DNA of 64,000 nt from Streptomyces malaysiense (GTDB lineage: Bacteria > Actinomycetota > Actinomycetes > Streptomycetales > Streptomycetaceae), in the NCBI RefSeq assembly GCF_000980885.2, contig NZ_LBDA02000006.1, positions 124,001-188,000 on the forward strand. The letters run 5' to 3'. Position 1 is the first letter of the stretch. Every line of letters begins with the position of its first letter. The position numbers and the translations under genes were made by a program. The notes beneath the pieces are model-generated. The model saw only the letters and a program-made list of their open reading frames with translations, had not been told where the DNA came from and did no database searches. Shown here in pieces: positions 16,713 through 25,844 of this stretch.

Positions 16713-16914
16713 CGAGATCGTGCGATCTGAGATCTGGTTGGCGGTGCCAGGGGGAGAGCCCGATCGGATCGGGCAACCGGAGCAGCATAGCAAGCCTGCG
16801 TCGGTAGAGCGAAACTACCATGACCGGGAGGAGGCCCGCCCCCGGCCCGCTTCCGGTGGGCACCGCCCCGGGGTCTACGCTGCGAGCACGTCAAGCCGGC
16901 TCAGGGAGGCGCAG

Positions 16915-18603
16915 GTGGCGCAGGTGCCGCAGACATTCCTCGATGGTCTCGCGGTGCGCACCTGGTGCGGTCTGGCCCTGCGCGCCCTGGGGCGGGCGCG
17001 CGAGGAGATCGACGCGATCAACGTCTATCCGGTGGCCGACGGCGACACCGGGACCAACCTCTATCTGACCCTGGAGTCCGCGGCGACGGCCGTGGAGGCC
17101 GTGTTCGCCGGATATGAGACGCAGCCCGCCGGTCCCACCCTCGCGGACGCGGTGCGCGCGATGGCCCACGGGGCGCTCATCGGCGCCCGGGGCAACTCCG
17201 GCACCATCCTCGCGCAGCTGCTGCGCGGCATGGCCCAGGTCCTCGCGGCGGACGGCGCGGAGCCCCGTTGCGACGGCCCCGCGCTGCGGCTCGCCCTGCG
17301 CCGGGCCGCCGACTCCGCCCGGCAGGCGGTGGCGCATCCCGTCGAGGGCACGGTGCTGACGGTCGCCTCGGCCGCCGCCGCCGCGGCCGAGCGCGCGGAC
17401 GGCGACTGCGGGACGGTCGCCCGAGCCGCCCACGAGGGCGCCCGCGCGGCCCTGGCGGCGACCCCGGCCCAGCTGGACGTCCTGGCGCGGGCAGGGGTGG
17501 TCGACGCGGGGGGCAGCGGGCTGGTGGCGGTGCTCGGCGCGCTGGTGGAGGCGTGCACGGGGGAGGCGGCGCGGGACCTGGCGGAGGCGGTGGACGCCGC
17601 ACCGGACCGGGCGGACCTCCTGCCGCGGGCCCTGCCCGGGACCGGAACCGGGGCCTGTGCCGGCGGGGCCGCCGAGGACGGTGGCCCCGCCTTCGAGGTG
17701 ATCTACCTGCTGGAGGCCGACGACACCGCCGTGGCCAGGCTGCGCACCCGGCTCGACGCCCTCGGCGACTCCCTGGTCGTCGTCGGCGGCGACGGGCTGT
17801 GGAACGTCCATGTGCACGTGGACGACGCGGGCGCCGCCGTGGAGGCGGGCGTGGAGGCCGGGCGCCCGTACCGGATCAGGATCACGCACTTCGGGCTCGG
17901 CGACGTGCACACCGGCGGGCCCCGCCCCCCGCGCGAGCGGGCCCAGCGGGCCGTGGTGGCCGTCGTGCCGGGTCAGGGCCTCGCCGAGCTGTACACCGAG
18001 GCCGGCGCGACCACCGTGCTCGCGCGGCCCGGGGAGCCACCCGCCAGCGGGGAACTGCTGGCGGCGGTGCGCCGGGCCCACGCGCGCGAGGTCGTGCTGC
18101 TGCCCAACGACGCCGAACTGCGCGACACCGCGGCCGCGGCGGCCGAGCAGGCCCGTACCGAGGGGGCCCGGGTGGCGCTGATCCCGACTCGCTCGGCGGT
18201 CCAGGGCATCGCGGCGCTCGCGGTGTCCGAGCCGGGGCGCCGGTTCGACGAGGACGTCGTCCAGATGACCTCGGCCGCGGGCGCCACCCGGTACGCGGAG
18301 GTCGTCGTCGCCGAGCACCGGTCCTGGACGACGGCCGGGATCTGCCAGGCCGGGGACGTGCTCGGGCTGATCGACGGCGACGTGGCGGTGATCGGGGCGG
18401 ACGTCACCACCGTCGCCGAGACCGTCCTGGACCGCATGCTCCAGGCCGGCGGCGAACTGGTCACCCTCGTCGTCGGCGACGAGGCGCCCGAGACCGTCGC
18501 CGGCCGTCTGGAGACCCGGGTACGGGAGTCCTACCTGGCCGTGGACACGGTGGTGTACCGGGGCGGCCGCCAGGGAGCGCTGCTGCTCATCGGCGTGGAG
18601 TGA
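16915..18603 (+). CDS. DAK2-domain protein, FakA/YloV-like kinase
   Basis: A 562-residue protein. Residues ~1-200 are a DhaL/DAK2 ATP-binding domain with the metal-binding Asp cluster in NVYPVADGDTGTNL and the ATP loop GARGNSGTILAQLL; the remainder is the FakA-type middle and C-terminal DAK1-like domain. Firmicute FakA phosphorylates fatty acids delivered by a DegV-like FakB; no FakB is next to this gene. GTG 16915 is preceded by GGGAGG with 5-base spacing; upstream frames are not conserved. In many bacteria this gene directly precedes recG. Here two opposite-strand genes intervene. Confidence 0.88.
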   Translation: MAQVPQTFLDGLAVRTWCGLALRALGRAREEIDAINVYPVADGDTGTNLYLTLESAATAVEAVFAGYETQPAGPTLADAVRAMAHGALIGARGNSGTILAQLLRGMAQVLAADGAEPRCDGPALRLALRRAADSARQAVAHPVEGTVLTVASAAAAAAERADGDCGTVARAAHEGARAALAATPAQLDVLARAGVVDAGGSGLVAVLGALVEACTGEAARDLAEAVDAAPDRADLLPRALPGTGTGACAGGAAEDGGPAFEVIYLLEADDTAVARLRTRLDALGDSLVVVGGDGLWNVHVHVDDAGAAVEAGVEAGRPYRIRITHFGLGDVHTGGPRPPRERAQRAVVAVVPGQGLAELYTEAGATTVLARPGEPPASGELLAAVRRAHAREVVLLPNDAELRDTAAAAAEQARTEGARVALIPTRSAVQGIAALAVSEPGRRFDEDVVQMTSAAGATRYAEVVVAEHRSWTTAGICQAGDVLGLIDGDVAVIGADVTTVAETVLDRMLQAGGELVTLVVGDEAPETVAGRLETRVRESYLAVDTVVYRGGRQGALLLIGVE

Positions 18604-18652: not shown

Positions 18653-21589
18653 TCACCCCGCCGTGCCGAGCATCCGGGCGGCCTCCGCGCGCCGTGCCCG
18701 GACGGTTTCGTCCGTGTCGTCGGCGTTCTCGTAGGCGGCCAGTACGGCGCGGGCACGGGCCGCCGCCTCCTCGGGGCGGCCCAGTTCGGCCGCCAGTCCG
18801 GCCGCCGCGAGTTCGGCGTCGGTGCGGTCGTGCAGCCCGGCCGCGCCGAGGGAGCCGAAGAGCGTGACCGCCCGCTCGAAGTGGGCCGCGCCCGGCCCCC
18901 CGGCCTGCGCCAGGAGGTCGCCGAACTGGCGGTGGGTCTGGGCCAGTTCATGGGTCAGTCCGTCCAGGGCGCGGGAGTCGGCGGCGTCCTGGCACGCGCG
19001 CTCGCACGCCTCCACGGCCTCGGCCATCAGCCCCTCGGCCGCCGGCGTCTCGCGCTCCTCGCGCAGCGCCAGCCACGCACGCGCCCGCAGGGAGCGGACG
19101 AGCAGCCGGGTGTCACCCAGGGCGCGCCACAGCTCGCCCGCGCGGGCGTAGGCCCGGTCGGCCTCCGCGGCCAGGCCCGCGCTGTCCAGGGAGTCGGCGG
19201 CGAGGTGGGCGAGCGTGGCGTGGTCGCGCTGTTCGGGCCAGTGCCGGGCGATGTCGGCGGCCAGCAGCCGCTGCTCGGCCGCCGCCCGGTGCTCGCCCAG
19301 TTCCTGCAGGCAGTCCCCGAGCCACCAGCGGGCCTGTACGACGGCCCCGTCGCCGTGCGTCTCGGCGCGCAGGTCGGCCAGCGCGGACTCCAGCACCTCG
19401 GCCGCCTCGGCGCACCGCCCCTGCCGCAGCAGGAATCCGCCCAGCCGCTGCCGCGCCCAGGCACCCGAGGTGCCGGACTCCCCGGCCTCGTCCGCCCAGT
19501 GCGTGGCCTGGAGCGCGTGCTCCGCCGCGGCGGCGGCGTCACCGCGTTCCGCCGTCAACTCGGATATCCGAAGGTGCAGTCGCGCCTGTCCGGTCGGTTC
19601 CACGTACGGGCCGCCGTGCTCCAGCGCCGCCCGCAGCGCCCGCTCGGCCCCCGCCCGGTCACCGGCCTCCTCGGCCAGCGCGGCGACCTGGACCTCGTAC
19701 TCCACCGCGCACCACGGCACCCCCGCGCGCACGTACTCCCCGGCGGCCCGCCGCAGCAGTTCCGCCGCCCGCGCACCGTCCCCGCGGGCCCCGGCCAGCT
19801 CGGCCAGCATCCCCCAGGACTCGGCGACCCGTGCCGTCAGCCGCACGTCCCCCTCGTCCCGCGTGCCGTGCCGCTCGATCAGGGCCGGCACCTCGCGCAC
19901 GGCGGCGTCCGCGTCCTCGGCGGGCCCCGCGCCGGTGCGCGCCCGGTGCATCAGGATCCGGGCCCTGCTCATCAGGACCGACGCGGTCTGCCGTATCCCG
20001 GTGGCCCCGTCGGCGTACAGCGCGAGGACCTCCTCGGACAGACCGGTCACCCGGGTCAGGGCCGCGTCCGGCTCACCCCGCAGCGCGCGGAAGTAGGCGC
20101 CCCGGGCCCGTGCCGCCAGGGCCTCGCCGGGGTCGTCCGCCGCCGCGTACAGCTCGGCCGCCCGCTCGAACAGCTCCGCGCCCTCCGGCCCCCGGGACAT
20201 GGCCTCGTGATCGGCGACCGCCGCGCGGTCCGCCGGGGAGAGTCCGCCGTCACCGGCGGCCCGCGCCACCGCGGCCCAGGCCTCCGGCGCCTCCGGGCGC
20301 AGGGTGTCCGCCAGCCGGCGCGCCTCGCTGAGGAGAGCGGGCAGACCGGGCCGACCGGGCTCACCTGGGAGAGCTTCGGCACCGGGGAGAGCCTGGGCGT
20401 CGGGGAGCGCGCGCGGGCCGGACGGACCGGACGCGGCGGCGGGGGACGACGGGGGAGCGGCCGCCGGAACCGTGCGGGGGGTGCGGACGCCCAGCGGGAG
20501 CCGGTCCAGCAGCGGCCGCCGGGCCATCCGCGCCCGCGTCCGGTCGCCGACGTGCGACGTGCCGTTGCGCGCGTCGAAACGCGTCGCCAGGGCCAGTGCC
20601 TCGGTGCGGGCGTGGGCCGCGAGGTCCCGTGCCGTCCAGGCGCGCCCGGCGGGGCCCGGTACCCGTTCGTCGCCGAGGCCCAGCCCGGTCAGGCGGTCGG
20701 TCAGCAGGGCCACCACGGCCAGGAAGTCCAGCCGGCTGCGCGGATGCCCGCTGTCCGTGAAGTAGGCGGGCCGCTCGGCCAGCAGCTCCAGGGCGCGCGC
20801 CTCGTTGCCGGTCAGCGCGCAGAACTCCACGTGCTCGGCGTACGCGGCCCGCATGCTCTCCATGGGCCGCACCAGCCGCAGCCCCCGCAGATGGTGGGCA
20901 CGGGCCTCCTCCGCGCGGCCCAGCCGCAGCAGCGGGACCAGGGACGCGGCGAGCACCGAGTGCGGCTCGTGCGCACAGCTGAACTCGCCCTCCAGCACGG
21001 GCCGCCACGCCGTGAGCGCCTCGGCGTCCCGGCCCCGCTCCACCTGCCACAGGCCCTGCCCGTACAGCTCGCAGGCATGGCAGTCGGCCATCCGGTCCCG
21101 GTCGGCGGCCAGCCACGCGGCGTACGCCCGCTCCGCCCGCGCCAGGTCCCCGACGTGCGCGGCCACGCTGAACTCGGCGCTGCGCACCGCCCGTTCGGAG
21201 TGCCCGGCGAGCCGGTAGCGGTGCTCCATCTCGCCCAGCCACTTCTCGATCGAGGCGAGCGGGACGTGCGGCTGGTCCAGCATGCCCGCCGACATCCACT
21301 TGAAGACCCAGTGCAGCGAATGCGTCTCGTACGCGTCGAAGTCCCCGGGCCGCTCGTCCCACATGCGCAGCAGGCGCGCGAAGGGGACGAACATCTTGTC
21401 CTTCTCGGAGCTGTAGTTGTAGACGCTCAGCTGGTGCCCGAGCGCCTCGATCACGGCCAGCGGAACGTCCAGCCCCTCGGCCGCGGCCAGCAGCCGCTCC
21501 GCGCGGGCGTTGCGGGCCGGGCCCTCGGGCTGCTCGGCGTTCTCCGCCATCGCCCGGCGCAGCGCCGGCAGGTCGGTGATCTCAGTCAT
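18653..21589 (-). CDS. Large TPR-repeat protein, partner of the HSP90-like gene
   Basis: A 978-residue soluble protein made almost entirely of helical hairpins of TPR type (for example ALAARARGAYFRALRGEPDA, AERALRAALEHGG, RQRLGGFLLRQGRCAEAAEV). A non-helical Pro/Ala/Gly linker at about residues 365-410 contains a six-residue tandem ALPDAQ/ALPGAE/ALPGEP and divides it into two solenoids. No enzymatic motif is visible. The ATG at 21589 overlaps the stop of the upstream HSP90-like gene by 8 bases, so the two are translationally coupled. TPR proteins are classical HSP90 partners in eukaryotes, so a client adaptor or co-chaperone role is a plausible inference. It converges on the DAK gene. Confidence 0.85.
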   Translation of the reverse strand: MTEITDLPALRRAMAENAEQPEGPARNARAERLLAAAEGLDVPLAVIEALGHQLSVYNYSSEKDKMFVPFARLLRMWDERPGDFDAYETHSLHWVFKWMSAGMLDQPHVPLASIEKWLGEMEHRYRLAGHSERAVRSAEFSVAAHVGDLARAERAYAAWLAADRDRMADCHACELYGQGLWQVERGRDAEALTAWRPVLEGEFSCAHEPHSVLAASLVPLLRLGRAEEARAHHLRGLRLVRPMESMRAAYAEHVEFCALTGNEARALELLAERPAYFTDSGHPRSRLDFLAVVALLTDRLTGLGLGDERVPGPAGRAWTARDLAAHARTEALALATRFDARNGTSHVGDRTRARMARRPLLDRLPLGVRTPRTVPAAAPPSSPAAASGPSGPRALPDAQALPGAEALPGEPGRPGLPALLSEARRLADTLRPEAPEAWAAVARAAGDGGLSPADRAAVADHEAMSRGPEGAELFERAAELYAAADDPGEALAARARGAYFRALRGEPDAALTRVTGLSEEVLALYADGATGIRQTASVLMSRARILMHRARTGAGPAEDADAAVREVPALIERHGTRDEGDVRLTARVAESWGMLAELAGARGDGARAAELLRRAAGEYVRAGVPWCAVEYEVQVAALAEEAGDRAGAERALRAALEHGGPYVEPTGQARLHLRISELTAERGDAAAAAEHALQATHWADEAGESGTSGAWARQRLGGFLLRQGRCAEAAEVLESALADLRAETHGDGAVVQARWWLGDCLQELGEHRAAAEQRLLAADIARHWPEQRDHATLAHLAADSLDSAGLAAEADRAYARAGELWRALGDTRLLVRSLRARAWLALREERETPAAEGLMAEAVEACERACQDAADSRALDGLTHELAQTHRQFGDLLAQAGGPGAAHFERAVTLFGSLGAAGLHDRTDAELAAAGLAAELGRPEEAAARARAVLAAYENADDTDETVRARRAEAARMLGTAG

Positions 21590-23417
21590 GGTCCGTCCCC
21601 CGCGTCGCCCACTCCAGCAGATCGACGAACGCCCGGTTGAGCAGCGCGGAGTCCGCGGGCCGCAGCGGCCGCTGCGCCATCAGCAGCGCCTGCCCGTACA
21701 GCGACTCGACCGCGGTGCCGATCAGCTCCGGATCGTCCAGTGAACTCACCTTCCGGATCAGCGGGTTGAGATGGTTGAGCACCAGCCGGGCGCGGGGTGC
21801 GCCGCCGCGCAGCGAGCCCAGGATGCCCGCCCACAGATCGTCGGCCTGCTCCTCGGCCGCCGCGCGGGCCTGCTCGTGCCGGGCCGCCCGGTCGTCCAAA
21901 TGCAGCGCCGGCACCGACAGCGGGTGGAAGGCGCGCAGCACGACGTCGCAGCCCAGCGGGTCCAGTTTCGCCCGCGCCGTCGCCAGGAACCCGGTGAGCA
22001 GCAGCTCCACGCCCGGCTCGACGCCGTCCAGATGCGCGGTCACGGTGTCCGCGTCCAGTTCGGCGACCACCGTCCCCGGCCGCACCGACGGCAGCGCCTC
22101 GATCAGCTCGCTGTCGTAGGTGTAACCGCCGTTGACCACGCCCACGCCCTGCGCCGAGGCGATCGCCGCGACCTGCCGGTACTCCTCGACGCTACGGGTG
22201 AAGTGCACCACCGGGTGCCGGCGCGCGAACTCCGCCAGCGACACCTGTCCGTCGGTCGTCTCGAACGGCAGCCACGGCAGCATCGTGCGCAGCATCTCGT
22301 GGTCGTGCCGCGCCAGCGACTTGACCCCGAGGTGGTGCACGGCGAGGAACGCCGCGAGCCGCTCCGGGTCACCGGCCGCGAGAGCGGTCAGCCAGCCGCG
22401 GATCCGCTCGCCGAGCGCGTCCCGCACGGCGGCCAGCGTCTCGTCCTCGTACAGCGACTCGCGCGAGGCGGTGGGCCGCAGGCTGTCGGTGTCCAGCACA
22501 CAGCGCACGAAGAACGCCCAGTCGGGCAGCAGCTGTTCGGCCCGCTCGGTGAGCAGCATGCCCTTGAGGTGCACCCGGTGCGTCGCCCGTTGCGCCGGGC
22601 TCACCGCGGACGGCAGCACATAGGCCACCCCGCGGACCCCGGCCAGCGGCACGTCCAGGTCGATCGAGTCCAGCGGGGTGAACCCGAACAGCCCCCGGCA
22701 GTGCCCGGCCAGCGCCACCCGGCGTGCGCCGGGGCTCGGATACGACCGGTCCCAGGGCGCGGGCAGTTCGGTGACCGGTTCCTCGTCCACCCGGACGTCG
22801 TAGGGCAGCAGCGCGCCGAAGTCCCGGGCCAGTGCGCGCACCCGCTCGGGCGCAAGCCACTCGGCCGCCCCGGGCCGGGGCGTCAGCTGCACCGTCGTAC
22901 CGGGCTCGGACCGGGCCGTGCCGGGCAGCGTCCGCACCGTGTACGAGCCGTCGTCGCGCGCCGTCCACTCCACCGGGGGCGCGTGCGGGGTGCGGGCGCT
23001 GCGGCTGACCACGCGGATCCGCTCGGCGACGACGAAGCAGGCGAGCAGGCCGATGCCGAACTGGCCGAGGAAACCGGAGCGGGCCTCCTGGAGCCCCTCG
23101 GCGCGCTTGGAGCTGCGCCCGATGGTCGCCAGCAGCTCGTGCACGTCCGACTCGGTGAGCCCGATGCCGCTGTCCGTCACGCTCAGGCCGCCGTCCGCGG
23201 TGTGCAGCCGGACCACCGCCGGGGCGCCGGGCGCGAGGGCCCGCCGGGCGGTGACGGCGTCCACCGCGTTCTGGAGCAGCTCGCGCAGATAGACCTTGGG
23301 GCTGGAGTAGAGGTGGTGGGAGAGGAGATCGACCAGACCGCGCAGATCGACCTGGAACGTGTGGGGGGGTAGGGGAGACTGCGAGGACTGGGATGACTGT
23401 GGGGTCTGGGAATCCAT
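21582..23417 (-). CDS. HSP90-family ATPase (HtpG-like, divergent)
   Basis: A 611-residue chaperone-type ATPase. The GHKL ATP site is intact: ELLQNAVDA (E46, N50), DSGIGL (D82) and GQFGIG (118-123). The middle domain has RVHLKGMLLTERAEQLLPDW and ASRESLYED, where HtpG has the catalytic-Arg SREMLQ. The last ~200 residues are poorly like canonical HtpG and lack a clear copy of its dimerisation helices, so this looks like the separate actinobacterial HSP90 family rather than HtpG. ATG 23417 chosen; GTG 23423 adds two residues. No Shine-Dalgarno seen. It forms an operon with the TPR gene. Confidence 0.88.
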   Translation of the reverse strand: MDSQTPQSSQSSQSPLPPHTFQVDLRGLVDLLSHHLYSSPKVYLRELLQNAVDAVTARRALAPGAPAVVRLHTADGGLSVTDSGIGLTESDVHELLATIGRSSKRAEGLQEARSGFLGQFGIGLLACFVVAERIRVVSRSARTPHAPPVEWTARDDGSYTVRTLPGTARSEPGTTVQLTPRPGAAEWLAPERVRALARDFGALLPYDVRVDEEPVTELPAPWDRSYPSPGARRVALAGHCRGLFGFTPLDSIDLDVPLAGVRGVAYVLPSAVSPAQRATHRVHLKGMLLTERAEQLLPDWAFFVRCVLDTDSLRPTASRESLYEDETLAAVRDALGERIRGWLTALAAGDPERLAAFLAVHHLGVKSLARHDHEMLRTMLPWLPFETTDGQVSLAEFARRHPVVHFTRSVEEYRQVAAIASAQGVGVVNGGYTYDSELIEALPSVRPGTVVAELDADTVTAHLDGVEPGVELLLTGFLATARAKLDPLGCDVVLRAFHPLSVPALHLDDRAARHEQARAAAEEQADDLWAGILGSLRGGAPRARLVLNHLNPLIRKVSSLDDPELIGTAVESLYGQALLMAQRPLRPADSALLNRAFVDLLEWATRGTDHD

Positions 23418-23618
23418 CGTCACTGCGCCGAAGGGGGAGGACGCGGCGCGGGGTCGGGCGGTCCCGCAGCAGGGGGCGGTGACCGCGAAGGACGGCCGGA
23501 ACGCGTCATCCTAGGGCCGGAACCGCCGGGCCGACCAGGGGCTATCGGGACCGGTACGGCATCCCGCGACGAACCCGTGGGACAGGCGTGTACGGCATTG
23601 TCGGTGCGGTGGTGTGCA

Positions 23619-25844
23619 ATGGATCTCGTGCCCGCACCGGAAGAACCACTGAAACAGCCGCTGAAGTCAGTGCTCGGCCCCGCCACCGCGAAGGTGATGG
23701 CCGAGCACCTGGGCCTGCACACCGTCGGCGACCTCCTGCACCACTACCCGCGCAGGTACGAGGAGCGCGGCCAGCTCACCCACCTCGCCGACCTCCCCAT
23801 GGACGAGCACGTCACCGTCGTCGCCCAGGTCGCAGACGCCCGCCTGCACTCCTTCGCCTCCTCCCGGGCGCCCCGCGGCAAGGGCCAGCGCCTGGAGGTC
23901 ACCATCACCGACGGCAGCGGCCGCCTCCAGCTGGTCTTCTTCGGCAACGGCGTGCACAAGCCGCACAAGGACCTGCTGCCGGGCACCCGCGCGATGTTCG
24001 CCGGCAAGGTCTCGGTCTTCAACCGCCGCCTCCAGCTCGCCCACCCCGCCTACGAGCTGCTGCACGGCGAGGGCGAGGGCGAGGAGGCCGTCGAGTCCTG
24101 GGCGGGCGCCCTGATCCCGCTCTACCCGGCCACCGCCAAACTGGAGTCCTGGAAGATCGGCAAGGCGGTGCAGACGGTCCTGCCCGCCGCCCAGGAGGCA
24201 CTGGACCCGCTGCCGCCCGCCCTGCGCGAGGGCCGCGGCCTGCTCCCGCTCCCCGAGGCCCTGCTCAAGATCCACCGCCCGCACACCAAGGCCGACATCG
24301 CGGACGCCCGCGCCCGCCTCAAGTGGGACGAGGCGTTCGTCCTCCAGGTCGCCCTGGCCCGCCGCCGGTACGCCGACGCCCAGCTCCCGGCGGTCGCCCG
24401 CCGCCCTCGGGCGGACGGCCTCCTCACCGCCTTCGACGACCGGCTGCCGTTCACCCTCACCGAGGGCCAGCGGAAGGTCTCCCGCGAGATCTTCGCCGAT
24501 CTCGCCACCGAACACCCCATGCACCGGCTCCTGCAGGGCGAGGTCGGCAGCGGCAAGACGCTGGTGGCCCTTCGCGCCATGCTCGCCGTGGTCGACGCGG
24601 GCGGGCAGGCCGCCATGCTCGCGCCGACCGAGGTGCTGGCACAGCAGCATCACCGGTCGATCACCGAGATGATGGGCGACCTGGCCGAGGGCGGCATGCT
24701 GGGCGGCACCGAACACGCCACCAAGGTGGTGCTGCTGACCGGTTCCATGGGCGCCGCGGCCCGCCGCAAGGCCCTGCTCGACCTGGCCACCGGCGAGGCC
24801 GGCGTCGTCGTCGGCACCCACGCCCTGATCGAGGACAAGGTCCGGTTCCACGACCTCGGGCTGGTCGTCGTGGACGAACAGCACCGCTTCGGTGTCGAAC
24901 AGCGCGACGCGCTGCGCGGCAAGGGCAGCCGGCCCCCGCACCTCCTGGTCATGACGGCCACCCCGATCCCGCGCACGGTCGCCATGACCGTCTTCGGCGA
25001 CCTGGAGACCTCCGTGCTCGACCAGCTCCCGGCGGGCCGCTCCCCGATCGCCAGCCATGTCGTCCCGGCCGCCGACAAACCCCACTTCCTGGCCCGCGCC
25101 TGGGAACGGGTGCGCGAGGAGGTGGAGAACGGCCATCAGGCGTACGTCGTCTGCCCCCGCATCGGGGACGAGGAGGACGACCCGAAGAAGGCGGCCGGCC
25201 GGAAGTCCCCCGAGGACGAGGCCGAGAAGCGGCCCCCGCTCGCGGTCCTCGACGTGGCCGGCCAACTGGCCGAGGGCCCTCTCCGGGGCCTGCGGGTCGA
25301 GGTGCTGCACGGCCGTATGCACCCCGACGACAAGGACGCCGTGATGCGCCGCTTCACCGCGGGCGAGACCGACGTACTGGTCGCCACCACGGTCATCGAG
25401 GTGGGCGTGAACGTCCCGAACGCCACCGCGATGGTCATCATGGACGCAGACCGCTTCGGCGTCTCGCAGCTCCACCAGCTGCGCGGCCGCGTGGGCCGCG
25501 GCTCCGCGCCCGGCCTGTGCCTCCTGGTCACCGAGATGCCCGAGGCGAGCGCCGCCCGCCAGCGGCTGAACGCGGTCGCCGCCACCCTCGACGGCTTCGA
25601 GCTCTCCCGCATCGACCTCGAACAGCGCCGCGAGGGCGACGTCCTCGGCCAGGCCCAGTCCGGCGCCCGCTCCAGCCTGCGCGTCCTGGAGGTCATCGAG
25701 GACGAGGAGGTCATCGCGGAGGCGAGGAGCGAGGCGATGGCCCTGGTGACGGCGGACCCGGACCTGGAGCGTCTGCCGGGCCTGCGGACGGCCCTGGACG
25801 CCCTGGTGGACGAGGAGCGGGAGCGGTACCTGGAGAAGGGCTGA
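23619..25844 (+). CDS. recG: ATP-dependent DNA helicase RecG
   Basis: A 741-residue branch-migration helicase that regresses stalled forks and processes recombination intermediates. An OB-fold wedge domain occupies residues ~60-150 (VTVVAQVADARLHSF, LQLVFFGNGVHKPHKDL). Walker A is GEVGSGKT, the helicase motif II is DEQHR, then TATPIPRT, and motif VI is QLRGRVGRG. ATG 23619 gives the N-terminus MDLVPAPEEPLK that I recall from the genus. No strong ribosome site. It is followed by rsmD-coaD on the same strand. Confidence 0.96.
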   Translation: MDLVPAPEEPLKQPLKSVLGPATAKVMAEHLGLHTVGDLLHHYPRRYEERGQLTHLADLPMDEHVTVVAQVADARLHSFASSRAPRGKGQRLEVTITDGSGRLQLVFFGNGVHKPHKDLLPGTRAMFAGKVSVFNRRLQLAHPAYELLHGEGEGEEAVESWAGALIPLYPATAKLESWKIGKAVQTVLPAAQEALDPLPPALREGRGLLPLPEALLKIHRPHTKADIADARARLKWDEAFVLQVALARRRYADAQLPAVARRPRADGLLTAFDDRLPFTLTEGQRKVSREIFADLATEHPMHRLLQGEVGSGKTLVALRAMLAVVDAGGQAAMLAPTEVLAQQHHRSITEMMGDLAEGGMLGGTEHATKVVLLTGSMGAAARRKALLDLATGEAGVVVGTHALIEDKVRFHDLGLVVVDEQHRFGVEQRDALRGKGSRPPHLLVMTATPIPRTVAMTVFGDLETSVLDQLPAGRSPIASHVVPAADKPHFLARAWERVREEVENGHQAYVVCPRIGDEEDDPKKAAGRKSPEDEAEKRPPLAVLDVAGQLAEGPLRGLRVEVLHGRMHPDDKDAVMRRFTAGETDVLVATTVIEVGVNVPNATAMVIMDADRFGVSQLHQLRGRVGRGSAPGLCLLVTEMPEASAARQRLNAVAATLDGFELSRIDLEQRREGDVLGQAQSGARSSLRVLEVIEDEEVIAEARSEAMALVTADPDLERLPGLRTALDALVDEERERYLEKG

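What the first reader, a model, noticed from the sequence alone, without database searches (positions are those of the whole stretch)
18653..23417. HSP90-like ATPase coupled to a large TPR protein, inserted between the DAK gene and recG
The sequence shows an intact GHKL/HSP90 ATPase whose C-terminal third is unlike HtpG, overlapping by 8 bases a 978-residue TPR solenoid on the strand opposite to the flanking core genes. In many bacteria and, as I recall, S. coelicolor, the DAK gene and recG are adjacent. HSP90 with a dedicated TPR partner looks like a two-component chaperone with its own client adaptor, an arrangement familiar in eukaryotes but little described in bacteria. Alternatively it may be a stress or conflict module.
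Basis: partly seen in the sequence, partly recalled or inferred. Interest (0 to 1): 0.75.

Follow-up and report, generated by a model that had tools for sequence, protein, structure and literature searches.

The report
Bacterial HSP90 with linked partner protein
Next to a DNA-repair gene in this Streptomyces lies a second, divergent HSP90 chaperone whose gene is almost always followed by the gene for one partner protein, in actinomycetes, Listeria, proteobacteria and some E. coli, which suggests that some bacterial HSP90s do have a dedicated helper.

Summary
The two genes are real and where stated: an HSP90 paralogue (21582-23423, -) overlapping by 8 bases a 978-residue partner (18653-21589, -), between a DAK/YloV gene and recG. 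The HSP90 belongs to a named family (NF010683, 852 bits) distinct from HtpG, with intact ATPase residues and a full HSP90 fold; its C-terminal third is diverged but HSP90-like. The partner has no named family: a conserved ~350-residue helical core with three invariant cysteines, then a fast-evolving TPR solenoid. The link is near-obligate: in 150 Streptomyces genomes the HSP90 is in 95 and the partner core in 97, including all 95, directly downstream at every HSP90 place (compared by eye). The gene trees agree. A related proteobacterial pair keeps the partner in 78 of 80 loci and occurs in 245 of 5426 E. coli genomes. At the DAK-recG site it is accessory (57 of 150). Best reading: a two-component chaperone, the core docking on HSP90, the solenoid bringing clients. 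Binding, clients and function are not shown; a private chaperone-client pair remains possible. Ten searches of an open-access library (capped listings) showed no paper on the pair.

The parts
21582..23423 (-). HSP90-family ATPase/chaperone paralogue (NF010683), 613 aa; alternative ATG start at 23417
   Evidence: NCBIfam NF010683 852.5 bits vs cut-off 455; HtpG model 173 vs cut-off 371; E48, N52, D84, G120/G123/G125, R321 invariant in 152 of 152 aligned relatives; full-length Hsp90 fold
20480..21589 (-). Conserved core of the partner, residues 1-370, with W94-x2-KW98, D169-C170-x-A-C173-E174, C205, F338-D339-x-R341
   Evidence: C170, C173, C205 conserved in 75 of 75 aligned partners from Streptomyces to Listeria; no Pfam/NCBIfam match of P0002 in this part
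18653..20302 (-). Variable C-terminal TPR solenoid of the partner, from about residue 430 to 978
   Evidence: Profile hits to TPR proteins at profile positions about 475-930; mean identity 0.52-0.61 within groups against 0.81-0.87 for the HSP90
21582..21589 (-). 8-base overlap of HSP90 stop and partner start (translational coupling inferred)
   Evidence: inferred partner start within -13 to +65 of the HSP90 stop in 72 of 72 fetched Streptomyces loci
23508..23537 (-). Putative promoter TGGTCG-N18-TAGGAT upstream of the HSP90 gene (-35/-10 like)
   Evidence: The element recurs with small variations in the 19 readable of 20 aligned recG-site upstream regions, the window included; L054 is cut there (coordinates)
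16720..18603 (+). Flank, not part of the module: DAK2/YloV (FakA-like) gene
   Evidence: TIGR03599 433.7 bits vs 396.1
23577..25844 (+). Flank, not part of the module: recG
   Evidence: NF008167 1146 bits vs 995

Best explanation
A two-component chaperone. The HSP90 paralogue is an ATP-driven dimeric clamp (shown: catalytic residues and fold; inferred: dimer and cycle). The partner is its dedicated co-chaperone: the conserved ~350-residue core docks on the HSP90, and the variable C-terminal TPR solenoid, where present, captures or selects clients and presents them to the clamp (inferred). The invariant cysteines of the core hold a metal ion or act as a thiol switch that shapes the docking surface (inferred). 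The genes are co-transcribed and translationally coupled so that both are made in fixed ratio (inferred from overlap and spacing). It works beside, and independently of, HtpG.
For: (1) Near-obligate linkage: partner core in 95 of 95 HSP90-bearing genomes among 150, directly downstream at every HSP90 place by comparison of the two coordinate lists by eye; 72 of 72 fetched loci. (2) Linkage at several sites: Streptomyces groups A, B, C lie at different places, yet each is recovered as a clade in both trees; distance correlation 0.966 over 73 pairs, 0.80-0.99 within groups with 0 of 999 permutations reaching it. (3) Same layout in distant bacteria: Listeria (two tandem partners, 324 and 320 aa), Paenibacillus (353 aa), faecal contig L036; proteobacterial type 78 of 80 loci. 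(4) Core-only partners in Listeria, Paenibacillus and four Pseudomonas (361-364 aa) show that the core alone keeps the link. (5) Core conserved, solenoid fast-evolving: mean identity 0.78/0.675/0.705 against 0.609/0.582/0.524 in groups A/B/C, as expected of a docking part and a client-facing part. (6) ATPase residues invariant in 152 of 152. (7) The 21 HtpG-like loci held (L002, L013-L032) show no partner homologue in their flanks of up to 1.5 kb.
Against: No interface was predicted and no experiment exists. Two genomes (G171, G425) carry a full-length partner (1070 and 1088 aa) with no HSP90 of this family and no HtpG found, and none within the 16 kb read: the partner can act or persist alone. 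One HSP90 of the proteobacterial type, Thorsellia L198, has no partner (aspS follows). No EEVD-like tail, the known Hsp90 dock for TPR co-chaperones, in any of 153 sequences including the query. Species relatedness alone can give correlated trees within a group. Homology between the Streptomyces and the proteobacterial partner cores is only suggestive (probability 80%).
Confidence: 0.58

Rival explanations
1. Private chaperone-client pair: the HSP90 exists to fold or hold one large, fragile helical-repeat protein, and the partner is the working molecule (a scaffold or sensor), not a co-chaperone.
For: Same linkage facts. Two orphan partners without any HSP90 found suggest that the partner carries the function. 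The partner is in most cases the larger and more variable protein.
Against: Core-only 320-364-aa partners are not obviously hard to fold; orphan partners do without the HSP90; the conserved part of the partner is the short core, which looks like a docking module.
Confidence: 0.22
2. Conflict or anti-phage module that uses a GHKL ATPase and a TPR sensor.
For: Patchy presence (95 of 150; 245 of 5426 E. coli); copies often toward chromosome ends and on a plasmid; weak GHKL-domain matches to TmtA and restriction enzymes; a cyanobacterial relative with a weak TIR-like tail lies beside a TIR gene, vWA and an AAA ATPase; 17 records of the phage collection match the HSP90, two of them over at least 80% of its length, MT837560 and a 1,607-base 'Listeria phage' fragment; a figure legend of the DefensePredictor paper names 'TPR' and 'HATPase' among domain labels of predicted systems, not resolved further (PMC13092281).
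Against: No PADLOC model for the partner and only domain-level matches for the ATPase; no nuclease, protease or toxin seen in the operon; sites among ordinary chromosomal genes at recG in Streptomyces and near fdhD in the one Salmonella and two E. coli regions read; pattern-based scans of IMG/VR found no relative for the Streptomyces-type queries and only ATPase-domain fragments for the proteobacterial one.
Confidence: 0.12
3. A redundant second HtpG with an unrelated neighbour; linkage is only shared descent at one site.
For: Family is an HSP90; at the recG site the pair could simply be inherited together.
Against: Linkage holds at unrelated sites and in other phyla; presence is independent of HtpG: both 39, pair only 56, HtpG only 26, neither 29 of 150 (counted by eye); HtpG model below cut-off.
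Confidence: 0.05

Closest known systems
NCBIfam NF010683 / PRK14083 'HSP90 family protein'
   Same: The HSP90 here scores 852 bits against a cut-off of 455; the Listeria homologue scores 799. It is a member.
   Different: The family model describes the ATPase only; it says nothing of the downstream partner. The proteobacterial-type HSP90 of Pseudomonas stays below the cut-off (293 bits).
HTPG Group C / hsp90C of Chen et al. 2006 (PMC1525184) and PMC3708813 (passages read)
   Same: A bacterial HSP90 paralogue outside the main HtpG group, in Actinobacteria, Firmicutes and gamma-proteobacteria; S. coelicolor is listed with two HTPG genes.
   Different: Assignment to Group C is my inference, not tested; no partner gene appears in the passages seen, and PMC3708813 sets hsp90B and hsp90C aside.
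HtpG (NF003555)
   Same: Full-length homology and common N-M-C fold.
   Different: 173 bits against cut-off 371; RELxQN in place of RELxSN at the ATP site (Q51 in 152 of 152; S in the own-genome HtpG); no partner homologue in the short flanks of 21 HtpG-like loci held.
Eukaryotic Hsp90 with TPR co-chaperones (Hop/Sti1, FKBP51/52, PP5; names recalled)
   Same: HSP90 clamp with a TPR-containing associate; works like it, by inference.
   Different: No EEVD-like tail; the conserved part of the partner is a cysteine-bearing core, not a short three-repeat clamp domain (recalled); linked genes.
Tiamat TmtA (name recalled for this PADLOC family) and other GHKL defence ATPases
   Same: Weak match over the ATP-binding domain (E 7e-10).
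   Different: TmtA models are 1302-1782 residues; the matched part is about 120 residues; no shared architecture seen.

Membership tests
NCBIfam NF010683 HSP90 family protein | score above curated cut-off 455 bits | tested here: met
   852.5 bits, residues 21-609
HtpG NF003555 | score above curated cut-off 371 bits | tested here: not met
   173.1 bits, residues 21-403
HSP90 superfamily | catalytic Glu, Mg/nucleotide Asn and Asp, glycine motif, catalytic-loop Arg | tested here: met
   E48, N52, D84, G120/123/125, R321 invariant in 152 of 152 relatives aligned
HSP90 superfamily | N, middle and C-terminal domains | tested here: met
   profile match over 575 columns; model vs TRAP1 7kcl Z 24.9, 513 aligned, rmsd 7.9, residues 25-610; model pLDDT 74, under 50 at 1-15, 105-122, 462-468, 512-542, 611-613
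HSP90 superfamily | ATP hydrolysis and chaperone activity | not testable with these tools
   needs protein
HTPG Group C (Chen et al. 2006) | phylogenetic placement in Group C | not tested
   reference sequences of that study not aligned here
Eukaryotic-type Hsp90-TPR co-chaperone pair | EEVD-type C-terminal tail on the HSP90 | tested here: not met
   0 of 153 sequences end in an EEVD-like motif
Eukaryotic-type Hsp90-TPR co-chaperone pair | TPR fold in the partner | tested here: met
   C-terminal half by profile; proteobacterial partner model pLDDT 92.6 matches TPR proteins. P0002 itself was not folded
Eukaryotic-type Hsp90-TPR co-chaperone pair | physical binding of partner to HSP90 | not testable with these tools
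   no complex prediction offered
Known anti-phage systems (PADLOC 2.0.0) | full-length match of a system's proteins | tested here: not met
   partner 0 families; ATPase only domain-level matches

The most novel reading that the evidence does not exclude
A widespread bacterial HSP90 line has an obligate co-chaperone whose core carries invariant cysteines (C-x2-C and one further Cys in the Streptomyces type; C-x4-C and C-x2-C in the proteobacterial type) that work as a zinc- or thiol-gated switch: stress opens or closes the docking of the partner and thereby loads or unloads clients on an HSP90 that is otherwise idle.
Probability: 0.12. Interest if true: 0.82.

Novelty: new variant of a known kind. 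Interest (0 to 1): 0.6.

Why it matters
A 2013 genome-scale study states that no obligate Hsp90 co-chaperones have been identified in bacteria (PMC3708813, passage), and a 2021 study that Hop, Aha1 and p23 have no apparent orthologues there (PMC8082187, passage). A genetically linked partner that follows an HSP90 across phyla makes that question testable in tractable hosts, E. coli isolates among them. It would also offer an independently built HSP90-TPR arrangement to compare with the eukaryotic one, and gives a probable role to a large unnamed protein family.

Tried and rejected
Heat-shock operators: no HAIR (HspR) or CIRCE (HrcA) site (motifs recalled) in the window with up to 3 mismatches. 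RNA structure in the leader: window 23418-23505 folds no better than shuffles (z -0.43). Phage origin: pattern-based scans of IMG/VR found no relative for the Streptomyces-type queries and 13 ATPase-domain fragments for the proteobacterial one; of the 17 matching records of the phage collection I read only MT837560 and the Salmonella contig. Third component: group C loci have a ~330-aa ORF called upstream in 29 of 38, but it matches neither partner core by profile, and one representative has no Pfam or NCBIfam match; unexplained. Homology of the two partner types is only suggestive: profile probability 80%, E 1.4e-5, with the CxxC columns aligned. A first clustering of neighbours timed out and was replaced.

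Literature, all from one open-access library: PA1068/PA1069 and lmo0942 searches led to table entries only. PA1069 appears with log2 change -1.98 in a table of PMC4957987 on temperature (which condition is the reference I did not check) and in a protein table of PMC5541441; lmo0942 in a fragment table of PMC3534079; 'PA1068' in PMC9995270 is a strain number. That no paper describes the pair rests on the listings of searches, several of them capped (for example 25 of 79 and 10 of 2911 papers listed).
Full report
What is there. On the - strand, between a DAK2/YloV gene (16720-18603, +) and recG (23577-25844, +), lie an ORF of 613 codons (21582-23423) and, overlapping it by 8 bases, one of 978 codons (18653-21589). 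Both reading frames are kept by homologues.

The HSP90. It scores 852.5 bits against NCBIfam NF010683 (cut-off 455) and 173 bits against HtpG (cut-off 371), so it belongs to an already named HSP90 family that is not HtpG. The catalytic Glu, the nucleotide-binding Asn and Asp, the glycine motif and the catalytic-loop Arg are invariant in 152 of 152 aligned relatives (73 of the Streptomyces/Listeria type, 79 of the proteobacterial type). The HtpG model stops at residue 403, but a profile made of 73 homologues aligns with a profile of actinobacterial HtpG-like sequences over 575 columns to the C-terminus (probability 100, E 1.2e-44). The predicted model (34 sequences, pLDDT 74, pTM 0.57) matches full-length Hsp90s over residues 25-610 (TRAP1 7kcl, Z 24.9). 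The C-terminal third is therefore a diverged HSP90 C-domain. The same genome has a separate HtpG.

The partner. P0002 has no NCBIfam or PADLOC match and only sub-threshold Pfam TPR matches. Alignment of 20 partners shows two parts. Residues 1-370 are a conserved core with W94, K97, W98, the motif D-C-x-A-C-E at 169-174, C205 and F-D-x-R at 338-341; the three cysteines are invariant in 75 of 75 aligned partners, two orphan copies included. From about residue 430 follows a variable stretch whose profile matches solved TPR proteins. In Listeria (two tandem copies, 324 and 320 aa) and Paenibacillus (353 aa) the partner is the core alone. One Listeria copy has a TPR_8 match just over its cut-off, so the core too is probably TPR-like.

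How tight the link is. In 150 Streptomyces genomes, drawn evenly by the tool, the HSP90 is present in 95 (E <= 1e-60) and the partner core, searched independently, in 97 (E <= 1e-20). All 95 are among the 97; comparing the two coordinate lists by eye, a partner lies directly downstream at every HSP90 place. In the 72 Streptomyces loci that I fetched by place (of 110 rows), the inferred partner start lies between -13 and +65 bases of the HSP90 stop in 72 of 72 (for L087 it is inferred from a match to the C-terminal half). The two partner-only genomes, G171 and G425, carry full-length orphans (1070 and 1088 aa) with no HSP90 of this family in the 16 kb read or found in the genome. G372 has, besides an intact pair, a remnant in which HSP90 residues 22-52 run into partner residues 212-370, as left by a deletion inside a former pair.

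Same partner, different sites. By sequence the Streptomyces copies form groups A (recG site plus three elsewhere), B and C. Trees of HSP90 and of partner cores from 73 pairs each recover A (19 recG-site copies), B (12) and C (34) as clades; in the HSP90 tree the A clade also takes in the three A-like copies from other sites (supports 0.945, 1.0, 1.0), in the partner tree it does not (supports 0.98, 0.992, 1.0). Distances correlate at 0.966 overall and 0.863, 0.801, 0.991 within groups (0 of 999 permutations each). Within-group correlation is partly expected from common species history; the agreement between groups at unrelated sites is the stronger point. Left out of the trees: six partial or broken loci (L063, L070, L084, L087, L101, L116) and the short search loci L001, L004-L010, L042 and L043, which include the window's own pair and three places not fetched again (L004, L007, L008).

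The DAK-recG site. Read by eye: 57 of 150 genomes have the pair there (56 beside recG, one beside DAK on a short contig; one of the 57, G305, has an interrupted HSP90), 38 have it only elsewhere, 55 have none. In 7 of 7 fetched sites without the pair DAK and recG lie within about 140 bases of each other. The site is occupied in genomes whose RecG is 78-84% as well as 90-93% identical to the window's, so old residence with repeated loss is at least as good as recent insertion.

Relation to HtpG. HtpG over cut-off is in 65 of 150: both 39, pair only 56, HtpG only 26, neither 29 (by eye), close to independence (41 expected for both). In 56 of 150 genomes the paired HSP90 is the only one found. 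The 21 HtpG-like loci held (L002, L013-L032) show no partner homologue in flanks of up to 1.5 kb.

Other phyla. A wider, proteobacterial form (25-29% identical to P0001) was found in Pseudomonas, Xanthomonas and Salmonella. One scan of genome contigs found 198 relatives, the best 80 kept (53-75% identical to the Pseudomonas query); a homologous partner lies downstream in 78 of 80, mostly within about 120 bases; in L175 and L191 the script put the gap at 1910 and 631 bases, for L175 because it read only a 3-residue HSP90 piece. Of the other two, L195 ends with the HSP90, and L198 (Thorsellia) lacks the partner, aspS following. Four Pseudomonas have core-only partners of 361-364 aa, the rest 748-785 aa. 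Four cysteines, C101, C106, C144, C147, are invariant in 78 of 78. The partner of Pseudomonas L143 folds with pLDDT 92.6 into a helical solenoid (1-562) and an alpha/beta domain (580-766) and matches TPR proteins such as OGT and LbcA (E about 1e-6). Streptomyces tateyamensis, Streptomyces sp. FH025 and a Kitasatospora carry this form too, so it probably moves between phyla. In E. coli 245 of 5426 complete genomes hold it, all with at least 80% of a query that spans the HSP90 and most of the partner, on chromosomes; in the two regions read it lies between fdhD and yiiG, in one of them with a frameshifted partner. The cores of the two partner types align by profile with the CxxC columns matched, at probability 80%: suggestive, not proof.

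How it most likely works. The core stays with the HSP90 even where the rest of the partner is missing, and the rest evolves fastest (mean identity in groups A/B/C: HSP90 0.873/0.850/0.812, core 0.78/0.675/0.705, C-terminal part 0.609/0.582/0.524). I read the core as the part that docks on the HSP90 and the solenoid as the client-facing part. The invariant cysteines sit near helix starts (Streptomyces type judged from sequence, proteobacterial type from the model); they would suit a metal site or a thiol switch, but the model calls residues 102-137 one helix, so the two pairs of the proteobacterial core may be far apart, and I had no coordinates to measure. No EEVD-like tail is present (0 of 153), so the docking cannot be the eukaryotic tail-in-clamp kind. 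All of this paragraph beyond the numbers is inference.

Rivals. A private chaperone-client pair explains the linkage as well and is favoured by the orphan partners. A defence module is weakly suggested by patchiness, GHKL kinship, a few phage-filed fragments and an unresolved pair of domain labels in a figure legend of PMC13092281; against it stand the lack of a PADLOC match for the partner, the lack of an effector, the sites among ordinary chromosomal genes and the negative viral scans. A mere second HtpG does not explain the linkage.

Literature. PMC3708813 (passages) states that no obligate Hsp90 co-chaperones have been identified in bacteria and sets the hsp90B/C paralogues aside. PMC1525184 (passages) defines HTPG Groups A-C and lists two genes for S. 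coelicolor; the passages mention no partner. A full-text search for 'HSP90 family protein' with 'tetratricopeptide repeat protein' and Streptomyces returned 0 papers. The library is open-access only.

Verdict. A real, conserved two-gene unit: a known HSP90 paralogue family plus an unnamed, near-obligate partner. New as a described pair as far as these searches go; function inferred.

Noticed in passing
L038 5932-10795 (Pseudanabaena sp. ABRG5-3 plasmid): 877-aa HSP90-like protein with a weak TIR-like (PF10137, 19.5 bits, below cut-off 24.7) C-terminal tail, followed by a 232-aa protein and a TPR protein, near a TIR gene, vWA and AAA ATPase: a possible conflict-type offshoot.
   Followed up: partly
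Group C loci, e.g. L034 6926-7903: A ~330-aa ORF directly upstream of the HSP90, called in 29 of 38 group C loci; the representative has no family match.
   Followed up: partly
L219 4802-8014 (G171), L220 6332-9598 (G425): Full-length orphan partners without HSP90, in genomes where neither the paired HSP90 nor HtpG was found.
   Followed up: yes
L221 6028-6584 (G372): Deletion remnant: HSP90 residues 22-52 run directly into partner residues 212-370.
   Followed up: yes
window 23508-23537: Recurrent -35/-10-like element TGGTCA/G-N18-TAGGAT upstream of the HSP90 in recG-site loci, and a strongly conserved GC-rich block between it and the start.
   Followed up: partly
L200, L201, L203: Streptomyces and Kitasatospora genomes with the proteobacterial-type pair (57-58% identical to the Pseudomonas query), a sign of transfer between phyla.
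   Followed up: no
MT837560.1 (L036): Contig filed as 'Bacteriophage sp.' with HSP90 and partner genes and no phage gene noticed; looks like a piece of an actinobacterial chromosome.
   Followed up: no
NZ_CP131792.1 (L035) and NZ_CP030101.1: Records filed as plasmids that look chromosomal: an 847-kb P. aeruginosa record with the liv transport cluster, and a 2.9-Mb Listeria record (size only).
   Followed up: no
RecG of about 25 genomes: Alignment to the window's RecG begins only at residue 250-366, which suggests an insertion or divergence in the N-terminal half.
   Followed up: no
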